A DNA stretch of 64,000 nt. It comes from Pseudobutyrivibrio sp. Lineage in GTDB: Bacteria; Bacillota; Clostridia; Lachnospirales; Lachnospiraceae. The notes under the pieces were generated by a model. That model had not been told where the DNA came from. It saw only the letters and a program-made list of their open reading frames with translations, and searched no databases. A program made the translations under genes and the position numbers. Below, in pieces: positions 17,613-32,149 of the stretch. The first letter of the stretch is position 1. Every line of letters begins with the position of its first letter. Location: the NCBI RefSeq assembly GCF_017471675.1, contig NZ_JAFUSK010000051.1, positions 1-64,000 of the forward strand, in the 5' to 3' direction.

Positions 17613-17708
17613 TATTTCTCCTTTAATTCCGTTTCAAAGTCATCCCTCTGAGCATTTTTTACTTTTGGGATGCATTTTAACAAAATCAAACTAATCCTAG
17701 ATACATTT

Positions 17709-24190: not shown

Positions 24191-25000
24191 TTATAAAAGA
24201 AACTCTCTTATTTTCTCCTCAACAAGCTTCACATCTATAGGCTCATCTGAGGATTCCATCGTTGTAATCAAATCTCTTCCTTGCCAATAACCATTTTTTT
24301 CATAGGCTTGTATCTTTTTAAAATTCTTTACAGCATACTCTATATCAGATGTCATTCCCAAATGCTCCCAGTAAATAGTCTTTCTAGTGCGCAGGTTAAG
24401 GACAACAAAATCAGGATAAACTGTGCTATATCCAAGTTCCAACATAGGCTCGTATTGGTAAGGGACCTTGTACTTGGCCAATGCATCTGCGATAATCTTT
24501 TCAGATTTAGAACGTACCATCTCCCCGCGATTTGTCTGATATAGACCTTTTTCTGGAAAAGTATTTTGGTTACCGGGATGTTGCTCTAACCATCTTTGTA
24601 TAAAAACCGATGTTGGTTCTACTAACGGAACTAACATATTCTTTCTGGAATCAGGCAATTTATCATACAGTGCCTCAATAGAATTTATGTCATAGCCTAA
24701 AATAAACTTGTTTAATCTATTCCGTAAATCAAATAGCTTCTTATCTACTGAAACAGCATATTCCTTTTGAATCAATTTCTTTATAAGCTTATATTTCTCT
24801 TTTCCGGCATACTTGCGTTTACCTGACTCTTTATCTACAAAATAGTATTGATGACAGCCTCTAACAGTTGAAGCTTTCACTCCATAATCCGGTAGGTTCT
24901 TTAATTTAGTCAAATTCTTTGTATTTACCTTTATTAATTCATCCAGTTCTCTTAACTGTTCTTCTAGTTCTTCCTTATAATTTCTCAAATTTTCCTCCAT
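24191..25000 (-). CDS. Orphan protein with coiled coil and PD-(D/E)XK-like nuclease domain
   Basis: This 269-residue cytosolic protein has three parts. Residues 3-35 are a charged coiled coil. Residues 45-85 look like a small hairpin-plus-helix DNA-binding module (YYFVDKESGKRKYAGKEKYKL). Residues 155-269 resemble the restriction-endonuclease fold: Glu167 in MVRSKSEKIIAD, YEPMLELG, Asp197 in VYPDFVVLNLR and Glu212-His213 in IYWEHLG, with no Lys two residues after the Glu. I know similar proteins as frequent hypothetical genes in Lachnospiraceae, without a function. The start may instead be TTG at 24988, because GGAGG (24994-24998) is well placed for it. The gene follows a leader with a ten-copy inverted-repeat array, so it probably acts on that array or is controlled by it. 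Confidence 0.75.
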   Translation of the reverse strand: MEENLRNYKEELEEQLRELDELIKVNTKNLTKLKNLPDYGVKASTVRGCHQYYFVDKESGKRKYAGKEKYKLIKKLIQKEYAVSVDKKLFDLRNRLNKFILGYDINSIEALYDKLPDSRKNMLVPLVEPTSVFIQRWLEQHPGNQNTFPEKGLYQTNRGEMVRSKSEKIIADALAKYKVPYQYEPMLELGYSTVYPDFVVLNLRTRKTIYWEHLGMTSDIEYAVKNFKKIQAYEKNGYWQGRDLITTMESSDEPIDVKLVEEKIREFLL

Positions 25001-25011
25001 TTCTTTCTTAC

Positions 25012-25309
25012 ATGCATCCCATCTACGGGAACTATGTTTTTGGGATGCATTGAAATTTATTTAATTTTCAAATATGCATCCCGCTACCACCTTTTACCCA
25101 TTTGGGATGCATGTTTTTCAGAAATCCAACGGGATTTCGTTCCCAATAAAAAATGTAGTAGCTCTTTATGCATCCTTATAAGTGCTTTTAAACAACAGGA
25201 TGCATACATAACATTAGCCGTGCATCCTATAACAAAAATCTCACTAATGGGATGCATACTCCATATTTTGAATGCATCCCAATTCACAAATTCCTATTGT
25301 AGGATGCAT
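25012..25309. repeat. Array of five inverted-repeat pairs (ATGCATCCY / RGGATGCAT) with 20-21 nt variable segments
   Basis: Ten copies of a 9-bp motif alternate strictly in orientation. They start at 25012, 25042, 25074, 25104, 25168, 25197, 25220, 25249, 25272 and 25301. Paired 1-2, 3-4 and so on, they enclose 21, 21, 20, 20 and 20 nt with no shared sequence. The gaps between pairs are 23, 55, 14 and 14 nt. Pairs 1 and 2 are perfect with a C-G inner pair. Pair 3 is perfect with a T-A inner pair, a compensatory double change. Pairs 4 and 5 keep at least the 7-8 bp core. The 55-nt gap contains another hairpin, GAAATCC/GGATTTC. The array is inside the predicted leader of the 24191-25000 gene. 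Confidence 0.9.
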
Positions 25310-25422
25310 AACTAAGTAAAATCCGCAAATAAATCTAATAAATTCATCTTGGAATAATTGGCGAAATGAAAATTCTGCCTTGATAGTGATATATTACACC
25401 ACTCCTGCAAACGACAGCTATG

Positions 25423-25451
25423 AATATAACTCCTATCCAAAGAAATGTCAA
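25423..25451 (-). promoter_or_regulatory. Consensus sigma-A promoter reading into the repeat array
   Basis: On the minus strand the -35 box is TTGACA (complement of 25446-25451) and the -10 box is TATATT (complement of 25423-25428), exactly 17 bp apart. Transcription should begin near 25416 and cross all ten repeat copies before the first codon near 25000, giving a leader of about 415 nt. I see no open frame of interest in the leader. Confidence 0.75.
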
Positions 25452-25494: not shown

Positions 25495-25540
25495 TCAAAA
25501 AAGCCCCGGAAACATTGAATTTTCAATGTTTCCGGGGCTC
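25495..25540 (-). terminator. Strong terminator of guaA
   Basis: AGCCCCGGAAACATTGAA (25502-25519) pairs over 17 bp with the segment ending CCGGGGCT (25538). It is followed on the minus strand by TTTTTT. It separates guaA from the repeat-array promoter. Confidence 0.9.
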
Positions 25541-31999: not shown

Positions 32000-32010
32000 A
32001 ACAAAGAAAG

Positions 32011-32149
32011 AACACCCCTCGTAATAGTCGGCAAGCGCGAGCAAGAGGGCCCCATGGAGTTAAGGAGGGACCCTTTAGGGAGGTTCCCTTGACTCCAATG
32101 GGAGATGGCTTGCGGGAGCATGTAAAACTACAGGGGGGTGTTTTATTTT
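32011..32149 (+). repeat. Family A structured element, copy A1
   Basis: The outer stem AACACCCC (32011-32018) / GGGGTGTT (32135-32142) is followed by a T-tract. It encloses a core shared with copies A2 and A3 in the opposite orientation: GGCAAGCGCGAGCA, GTTAAGGAGGGACCC, a small hairpin and AATGGGAGATGGCTTGCGGG. It can work as the terminator of the kinase-like gene and, with its A-rich left flank, of the convergent mecA. The outer stem differs in sequence from those of A2 and A3. Confidence 0.8.

What the first reader, a model, noticed from the sequence alone, without database searches (positions are those of the whole stretch)
25012..25309. Alternating inverted-repeat array with fixed-length variable segments in the leader of a nuclease-like gene
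Ten 9-bp copies of ATGCATCCY/RGGATGCAT alternate perfectly in orientation. Paired, they enclose five unrelated segments of 20, 20, 20, 21 and 21 nt. One pair shows a compensatory change (inner C-G replaced by T-A). The array starts 12 bp from a PD-(D/E)XK-like gene and is predicted to be transcribed with it. Fixed loop length with variable sequence recalls guide-carrying RNAs; other readings are an array of dimer binding sites, a REP/RAYT-like module or a toxin-like mobile unit. Adjacent pairs are also inverted across 14-23 nt gaps, so the true pairing is ambiguous.
Basis: partly seen in the sequence, partly recalled or inferred. Interest (0 to 1): 0.92.

Follow-up and report, generated by a model that had tools for sequence, protein, structure and literature searches.

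The report
Nuclease genes with matching DNA arrays
Some gut and rumen bacteria carry several copies of a nuclease-like gene, each beside its own array of evenly phased short DNA words, with matching arrays scattered elsewhere in the genome, which looks like an undescribed partnership between an enzyme and its own genomic repeats.

Summary
The array is real: five units ATGCATCCY-(20/21 nt)-RGGATGCAT at 25012-25309, in the leader of a PD-(D/E)XK-like gene. It does not behave as guide RNA: segments drift in register between orthologues, arms do not co-vary, and same-orientation spacings across 45 clusters of arrays follow the 10.5-bp DNA helix.

It is one of many. The genome holds eight members of the gene family; 67 of 88 loci examined carry such an array beside the gene, with words that differ between lineages. 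The word tracks the protein's N-terminal half, not its nuclease half. In a near relative, leader, array and N-terminal half are replaced as one block (36-63% DNA identity), while the nuclease half and both neighbouring genes stay 84-100% identical. All four words tested also form gene-less arrays elsewhere in this genome; one word's arrays are visibly copies of each other.

Best reading: a nuclease addressed by its N-terminal half to its own helically phased dsDNA arrays, an enzyme-repeat partnership that works like REPIN/RAYT but with an unrelated enzyme and another kind of site. Binding, cutting, autoregulation and the copying step are inferred; structure prediction could not be run.

The parts
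24191..24988 (-). Nuclease-like gene, 265 aa from the probable TTG start at 24988 (269 aa if read from the ATG at 25000)
   Evidence: ORF; SD GGAGG 24998-24994 and alignment of starts; one of eight members in the genome
24191..24597 (-). C-terminal PD-(D/E)XK-like nuclease half
   Evidence: PADLOC PDC-S68 E 4.5e-31, residues 139-267; E167, P196-D197-F198, E212-H213 invariant in 65 sequences; 94-98% DNA identity to L021
24598..24988 (-). N-terminal half, inferred reader of the array word
   Evidence: Word similarity tracks this half after allowing for the C-terminal half (partial r 0.265, 0 of 2000 permutations); exchanged together with the array in L021
25012..25309 (.). Array of ten alternately oriented half-sites (five units)
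   Evidence: kept in position and orientation in L016-L019 while segments drift, partly decayed in L020
25012..25050 (.). Unit 1, ATGCATCCC...GGGATGCAT
25074..25112 (.). Unit 2, ATGCATCCC...GGGATGCAT
25168..25205 (.). Unit 3, ATGCATCCT...AGGATGCAT
25220..25257 (.). Unit 4, GTGCATCCT...GGGATGCAT (one mismatch)
25272..25309 (.). Unit 5, ATGCATCCC...AGGATGCAT
25351..25391 (-). Block between promoter and array that is conserved in the orthologues and partly in alleles with other words (TATCACT...GGCA...TTTCATTTCGCCA...)
   Evidence: alignment and by eye in L021, L023, L027; function unknown
25423..25451 (-). Promoter-like site TTGACA-N17-TATATT
   Evidence: 11 of 12 matches; prediction only
25502..25539 (.). 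Terminator-like hairpin between guaA and the array locus
17638..17675 (.). Single degenerate unit of the same word (two mismatches), 7.3 kb from the array
   Evidence: units of the same word occur beside the corresponding genes in L110 (about 6324) and L111 (about 9693)

Best explanation
Each gene of this family encodes a PD-(D/E)XK-like nuclease whose N-terminal half recognises one DNA word of about 8-10 bp. The word is laid out as alternately oriented half-sites spaced by whole helical turns, so that many copies of the protein can sit in register on the DNA as a cooperative complex. The array in the leader puts the gene under its own product's control. Gene-less arrays of the same word elsewhere are further sites of the same protein and arise by copying. 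Array and N-terminal half are exchanged as one specificity cassette while the nuclease half stays. SHOWN by sequence: association of array and gene, helical phasing, the word tracking the N-terminal half, one clear cassette swap, solo arrays with matching words, copying between loci for the CTGTCACA word, no RNA-stem co-variation. INFERRED: direct binding, autoregulation, cutting, and that the nuclease drives the spread or upkeep of arrays.
For: Eight members in the genome, words next to seven of them. Array found in 67 of 88 loci (63 of 87 upstream, 6 of 88 downstream) against 0 of 89 window segments and 2 of 371 distant flank segments. Spacings: 123 values from 45 clusters, best period 10.55 bp, R 0.76, 0 of 20000 jittered sets as high. 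Word against N-terminal half: partial r 0.265, 0 of 2000; against C-terminal half 0.002, 964 of 2000. Cassette: window against L021, DNA 36-63% from 25496 to 24598, 84-99% before in guaA and 92-100% after through the S66 gene; protein C 0.96, N 0.44; dS 0.10 against 1.54. N-terminus at least 60% identical: 10 of 10 other loci have two or more exact ATGCATCC sites upstream; at most 49%: 0 of 15. Gene-less arrays for four of four words tested in this genome; CTGTCACA segments across loci 52% alike against 30% shuffled. No arm co-variation. Nuclease half under purifying selection, dN/dS 0.03-0.20 in the 8 of 10 pairs that gave a ratio.
Against: No binding, cutting or expression data, and no structure: the prediction server was full at all 20 attempts. 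21 of 88 loci show no array. The 80 outside loci are the nearest relatives, not a random draw. Word and gene do not always agree within a genome: 6 of 14 genus genomes without an ATGCATCC-type N-terminus still hold such units, and G312, whose gene is TACAGT-type, keeps an ATGCATCC array beside its flavodoxin gene. The canonical lysine of the (D/E)XK motif was not located. No exact insertion footprint or target duplication was found. The word-N correlation is carried mainly by close pairs (partial r 0.122 when N is below 0.5).
Confidence: 0.68

Rival explanations
1. Pure autoregulation: the protein is mainly a self-controlling DNA-binding enzyme, the array is an oversized operator, and solo arrays are remnants of lost gene copies without function.
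For: Arrays lie mostly upstream (63 of 87 against 6 of 88 downstream), here between a promoter-like site and the ORF.
Against: Arrays lie downstream or on both sides in 6 loci (L003, L008, L029, L034, L058, L070). In 11 stretches of this genome with solo arrays no family gene was found, and 14 of 18 stretches from the genus had none. CTGTCACA arrays at different loci are copies of each other. Up to 25 sites (L066) exceed ordinary operator needs (judgement, not a test).
Confidence: 0.2
2. RNA hairpins or RNA antitoxin: the leader is transcribed as stem-loops that bind or inhibit the protein, as the repeat RNA does in type III toxin-antitoxin systems (recalled).
For: The array lies between a promoter-like site and the gene; cognate word-protein pairs.
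Against: No compensation between arms in either register: 12 against 13.5 and 11 against 15.6 in shuffled partners; position 9 independent; spacing periodic at 10.5 bp; some arrays only downstream; gene-less arrays.
Confidence: 0.04
3. Guide RNAs: the 20-21 nt segments are guides for the nuclease.
For: Near-constant segment length with variable content in the ATGCATCC units (51 of 64 distinct units are 39 bp, 12 are 38, 1 is 37; the pattern itself allowed 36-41).
Against: Segments diverge in register between orthologues rather than being exchanged; in other words of the family they are near-copies of each other; their composition is symmetric, AT-rich beside the word and at the centre; helical phasing.
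Confidence: 0.02
4. Restriction-like or abortive defence: the array is a store that holds an otherwise dangerous nuclease, released on infection.
For: The nuclease half is related to candidate defence proteins PDC-S68 and to the ends of AAA/RecD-like proteins on plasmids.
Against: The window neighbours are housekeeping-like genes (guaA, LD-carboxypeptidase, acetyltransferase); PDC-S68 matches only over the C-terminal 130 residues of a 1221-position profile. Nothing tested speaks to phage response.
Confidence: 0.06

Closest known systems
REPIN/RAYT (REP doublets with REP-associated tyrosine transposases; PMC3116915, passages read)
   Same: Inverted doublets of a short word with a variable spacer, in extragenic DNA, beside a cognate enzyme gene and also dispersed without it; several orthogonal families in one genome.
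   Different: The enzyme is PD-(D/E)XK-like, not an HUH/Y1 transposase. Sites are helically phased arrays of up to 25 half-sites without hairpin co-variation. Far fewer copies. Word and reader half are exchanged as a cassette.
PDC-S68 candidate phage-defence proteins (PADLOC)
   Same: C-terminal nuclease domain (E 4.5e-31).
   Different: Only about 130 of 1221 profile positions are shared; the rest is absent; the N-terminal half here is of no known family.
Tn7-like TnsA with arrays of TnsB sites at the ends (recalled)
   Same: PD-(D/E)XK-like nuclease and arrays of short sites, in L003 and L034 on both sides of the gene.
   Different: No partner transposase gene beside the window gene; the nuclease gene carries its own reader half; no defined ends found.
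Type I restriction HsdS target-domain exchange (recalled)
   Same: A recognition domain is exchanged at a constant locus while the rest stays.
   Different: Here the target array is part of the exchanged block; no methylase gene among the window neighbours named.
Type III toxin-antitoxin systems (recalled)
   Same: Repeat array in the leader of the effector gene; cognate specificity.
   Different: Alternating inverted instead of direct repeats, helical phasing, no RNA-stem co-variation, arrays also downstream and gene-less.

Membership tests
REPIN/RAYT | Cognate enzyme is a Y1/HUH tyrosine transposase | tested here: not met
   Matches PD-(D/E)XK-containing profiles; no transposase family in Pfam, NCBIfam
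REPIN/RAYT | Inverted doublets predicted to pair as hairpins | tested here: not met
   Inverted doublets present, but arms do not co-vary and spacing follows the dsDNA helix
REPIN/RAYT | Repeats beside the enzyme gene | tested here: met
   67 of 88 loci
REPIN/RAYT | Same repeats dispersed in extragenic DNA | tested here: met
   Four of four words in this genome; 15 of 25 genomes of the genus for ATGCATCC; short ORFs overlap a few arrays
REPIN/RAYT | High copy number (hundreds of doublets in P. fluorescens SBW25) | tested here: not met
   5 to 31 exact pairs per word in this genome
Type III toxin-antitoxin | Direct tandem RNA repeats upstream of the toxin | tested here: not met
   Repeats alternate in orientation; no stem co-variation; downstream arrays
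Type III toxin-antitoxin | ToxN-like RNase fold | not testable with these tools
   Structure prediction busy at all 20 attempts; no such Pfam family
CRISPR-like or guide RNA arrays | Variable segments acquired and exchanged, used as guides | tested here: not met
   Segments drift vertically in register; not compared with phage or plasmid sequences
PD-(D/E)XK nucleases | Conserved acidic motif and lysine | tested here: inconclusive
   E167, D197, E212 invariant in 65 sequences, position 214 is not lysine; K165 invariant and K229 nearly so; profile match; no fold
Tn7-like elements | Partner transposase and defined ends | tested here: not met
   No transposase-like neighbour of the window gene among the ORFs listed; not examined at the other loci
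Mobile element in general | Defined insertion of gene or array into an empty site | tested here: inconclusive
   Presence or absence of arrays at the same intergenic places, no exact boundary or target duplication established

The most novel reading that the evidence does not exclude
Probability: 0.4. Interest if true: 0.93.

Novelty: categorically new. Interest (0 to 1): 0.86.

Why it matters
If right, it is a second, independent form of the enzyme-plus-interspersed-repeat partnership known from REPIN/RAYT, with a different enzyme and dsDNA arrays in place of hairpins. It gives dozens of natural protein-word pairs (67 arrays in this set), including a recent cassette swap, from which the recognition code of an undescribed DNA-reading domain could be worked out. 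It also makes testable how ten scattered sites and a protein change their word together, and whether a nuclease can maintain or spread its own binding sites.

Tried and rejected
Guide RNA, hairpin and type III antitoxin readings were tested and rejected. Rfam gave three matches below gathering scores, taken as chance. Pfam, NCBIfam and PDB sequence searches gave no family for the protein; PHROGs gave only weak matches of the nuclease half of one relative. My impression that the N-terminal half resembles arm-binding (AP2-like) domains of integrases is recalled from the residue pattern and confirmed by no call. A regulon reading was rejected: solo arrays sit beside unrelated genes. Phage or plasmid home: 3 of 50,697 phage records match, one of them over 83% of the query at 32.5% identity (an unannotated 4.2-kb faecal 'Bacteriophage sp.' record, MT839528.1, not followed up); 9 plasmid records match, none over 80%; one viral contig matches, over the nuclease half. 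Clean transposon-like ends were looked for at three places without an exact footprint. DNA bending is only suggested: AT enrichment at gap centres is weak over all arrays (0.036, se 0.017, 42 of 66 arrays positive); in the ATGCATCC units inner A/T tracts are 38 of 64 against 28.5 shuffled, but the highest of 500 shuffles was 39. Site layout shared by the window and L027 despite different words: 8 of 10 sites within 2 bp, reached by 124 of 5000 gap-order permutations, so moderate. Literature: (search listings) show nothing that describes this; passages of PMC3116915 read. Subscription papers and preprints are not in that library.

Full report
THE OBSERVATION. Five units lie at 25012-25050, 25074-25112, 25168-25205, 25220-25257 and 25272-25309. 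Each is ATGCATCC plus C or T (GTGCATCCT once), a 20-21 nt segment and the inverted word. The window has 10 exact words, 9 of them here; 1.74 are expected and 100 shuffles give at most 6. The gene reads on the minus strand. A promoter-like site lies above the array at 25451-25423, and a terminator-like hairpin at 25502-25539 separates the locus from guaA (predictions). The likely start is the TTG at 24988 with GGAGG before it, which lines up with relatives.

THE FAMILY. The genome (3.10 Mb in 92 contigs; the window is contig C21) has eight members, this one included. A simple finder showed different words at other members: AGATAGTA on both sides of the C7 gene, AGTGGTAA at C15, CTGTCACA at C52 and C24, GCGCCCAA downstream at C18. 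A more sensitive one adds TTCACTTAA at C51 and finds none at C74, where 510 nt were available. Their titles name Pseudobutyrivibrio, Butyrivibrio, Acetatifactor, Lachnospira, Oribacterium, unnamed Lachnospiraceae and one Clostridiales. In a draw of 295 genomes of the order, 49 match at E 1e-10 or better, in 21 of 129 genera. Of 19 further loci looked at there, 16 are from another family (f8); an array scoring above 18 and above its own 10 shuffles was found in 8 of these 16 (L140-L144, L148, L149, L151; two of them downstream) and in 1 of the 3 others (L156).

ARRAYS ARE A PROPERTY OF THE FAMILY. The finder (9-mers, at most one mismatch, both strands, 20 dinucleotide shuffles each) called an array upstream in 63 of 87 loci, downstream in 6 of 88, and on at least one side in 67 of 88. 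The pass mark was a score above 18 and above the locus's own shuffles; the highest single shuffle anywhere was 19.5. On real DNA elsewhere, 0 of 89 window segments and 2 of 371 segments 2-4 kb from the genes score above 18, and one of those two carries the word of its own gene (L091, GGCATGCGG). The 21 loci without a call may lack arrays, have decayed ones or have too little flanking DNA.

SITES ON DOUBLE-STRANDED DNA. Spacings between consecutive same-orientation sites were counted once per value and per cluster of related N-termini: 123 values, 45 clusters. Of these, 95 fall at 41-42 (4), 52-53 (39), 62-64 (25), 72-75 (11), 93-95 (5) and 103-107 bp (11). The best period is 10.55 bp, phase near zero, R 0.76; 0 of 20000 sets jittered by up to 8 bp reach it. 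Against RNA stems: in 64 distinct ATGCATCC units, some of them orthologous, the ninth bases of the arms are C-G 44, C-A 10, T-G 9 and T-A 1, 19 discordant against 17.6 expected if independent. Over the 67 arrays, positions changed alike in both neighbouring arms number 12 (shuffled partners 13.5) and 11 (15.6) in the two registers, against 308 and 297 changed in one arm only. Orthologues L016-L019 (70-73% identical in protein) keep the repeats in place while the segments drift in register; in L020 several half-sites differ. The segments are spacers, not guides.

THE WORD FOLLOWS THE N-TERMINAL HALF. Over 67 arrays, word similarity correlates with N-terminal identity after allowing for the C-terminal half (partial r 0.265, 0 of 2000 permutations) but not the reverse (0.002, 964 of 2000). 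With N-identity 0.5-0.6 the word is shared in 64% of 11 pairs, at 0.6-0.8 in 95% of 20, above 0.8 in all 5; of 9 pairs with C-identity of at least 0.8 but N below 0.5, none shares it. Among pairs with N below 0.5 the partial r is only 0.122. In the genus, the 10 other loci with N-identity of 60% or more to the window all have at least two exact ATGCATCC-type sites upstream; 0 of 15 with 49% or less do; one further locus could not be read. Genomes with such an N-terminus hold more units than the rest (11 against 14 genomes, p 0.004; units in 9 of 11 against 6 of 14; on counts). The two of the 11 without exact units are G007 and G021; G021's word has drifted to ATGCAACC.

A SPECIFICITY CASSETTE. 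L021 comes from a genome close to this one (guaA 98% over the part held, the LD-carboxypeptidase 97% in protein). DNA identity along the locus is 84-99% in guaA, 36-63% from 25496 to 24598 (leader, array, N-terminal half), 94-98% through the nuclease half, and 92-100% on through the next gene. In protein the C-terminal half is 96% and the N-terminal half 44% identical; dS is 0.10 and 1.54. The array word there is of a TACAGTKATTTT type. In 26 genomes of the genus with guaA found, 12 have the gene readable behind it, 1 a fragment, 7 none within about 1.5 kb (two of these, G009 and G005, have it slightly further away) and in 6 the contig ends too soon. The 12 carry ATGCATCC (7), ATGCAACC (1), TACAGT (2), TACGGAA (1) and ACCCGTAA (1). 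The G005 allele (L027, ACCCGTAA) keeps 8 of 10 site positions of the window array within 2 bp; 124 of 5000 gap-order permutations do as well.

GENE-LESS ARRAYS. The unit ATGCATCCYN(18-23)RGGATGCAT occurs in 15 of 25 genomes of the genus and 0 of 16 outside it, backward control 0. Of 18 stretches fetched around such hits, 14 hold no family gene; the neighbours are unrelated, often convergent or tandem 3' ends. In this genome all four words tested have arrays away from the gene: ATGCATCC on C49 and C24, CTACTATCT on C19 and C86, TTACCACTG on C31, C45 and C73, CTGTCACA on C19, C26, C28, C71 and C88 and singly on C11 (its backward control gave 1). The 11 stretches with solo arrays hold no family gene; CTACTATCT reaches 12 and 13 sites. 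CTGTCACA segments at different loci are 52% alike (363 comparisons, gene arrays included) against 30% shuffled, so these arrays are copies. Beside a flavodoxin-like gene, ten genomes were compared: G000, G312 and G006 have an ATGCATCC array, G012 a TACAGT array at the same place, G008, G314 and G019 the same neighbour but no ATGCATCC site, and G001, G022 and G004 another neighbour. G012's gene at guaA is TACAGT-type, so word and gene agree; G312's is TACAGT-type too but its solo array is still ATGCATCC, as expected soon after a swap and against strict matching.

MECHANISM. The simplest account is a nuclease with an N-terminal reader for one word, gathered in register on long phased arrays. The leader array would give self-control; solo arrays are further sites. 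The nuclease half is under purifying selection (dN/dS 0.03-0.20 in the 8 of 10 pairs with a ratio; the N-terminal half 0.09-0.35 except one pair with dS 0.01 and ratio 1.97), so more than DNA binding seems to be kept. How arrays copy is unknown. Breaks or nicks by the nuclease, repaired from another array, could spread arrays and carry cassettes, but that is inference. Binding, cutting and structure are untested; the structure server was full at all 20 attempts.

COMPARISON. It works most like REPIN/RAYT as described in passages of PMC3116915: inverted doublets, extragenic, beside and away from a cognate enzyme. It is not a member: the enzyme differs, the hairpin criterion fails and copy numbers are far lower. 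No paper in the searched open library was seen to describe it (listings); subscription papers and preprints could not be searched, so a description elsewhere cannot be excluded. 'Categorically new' rests on that and on the failed memberships; if the REPIN/RAYT analogy were taken as the kind, it would be a new variant.

Noticed in passing
L112:2354-2613 and L113:11384-11643: The solo ATGCATCC array behind cytidylate kinase is present in 2 of 26 genomes (G022, G009) and appears inverted between them together with its flanks (by eye).
   Followed up: partly
L248:1985-2320 (G000 C88): In G000 and G312 a CTGTCACA array begins right behind a stop codon, where in G008 and G015 the same gene reads on, so an array seems to sit at a gene truncation or rearrangement point.
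   Followed up: partly
window 24986-25000: Start codon probably the TTG at 24988 with GGAGG at 24998-24994; the ATG at 25000 overlaps this ribosome-binding site.
   Followed up: partly
window 25351-25391: Conserved block between promoter-like site and array, shared by orthologues and partly by alleles with other words; contains TGGCA...TCGCCA-like inverted pieces; function unknown.
   Followed up: no
window 17638-17675: A single degenerate unit of the same word 7.3 kb away, between two minus-strand genes.
   Followed up: partly
L020 leader (G021): Array with a mixture of ATGCATCC and ATGCAACC half-sites, possibly a word caught while changing.
   Followed up: no
window 32000-32140: Intergenic block behind cytidylate kinase with long inverted repeats; G312 and G008 carry a different hairpin-like block at the same place (by eye), possibly unrelated small mobile elements.
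   Followed up: no
L003 (G000 C7) and L034: Gene flanked by arrays of the same word on both sides, the layout most like a two-ended element.
   Followed up: partly
MT839528.1:380-1048: An unannotated 4.2-kb faecal phage record holds a relative covering 83% of the protein at 32.5% identity.
   Followed up: no
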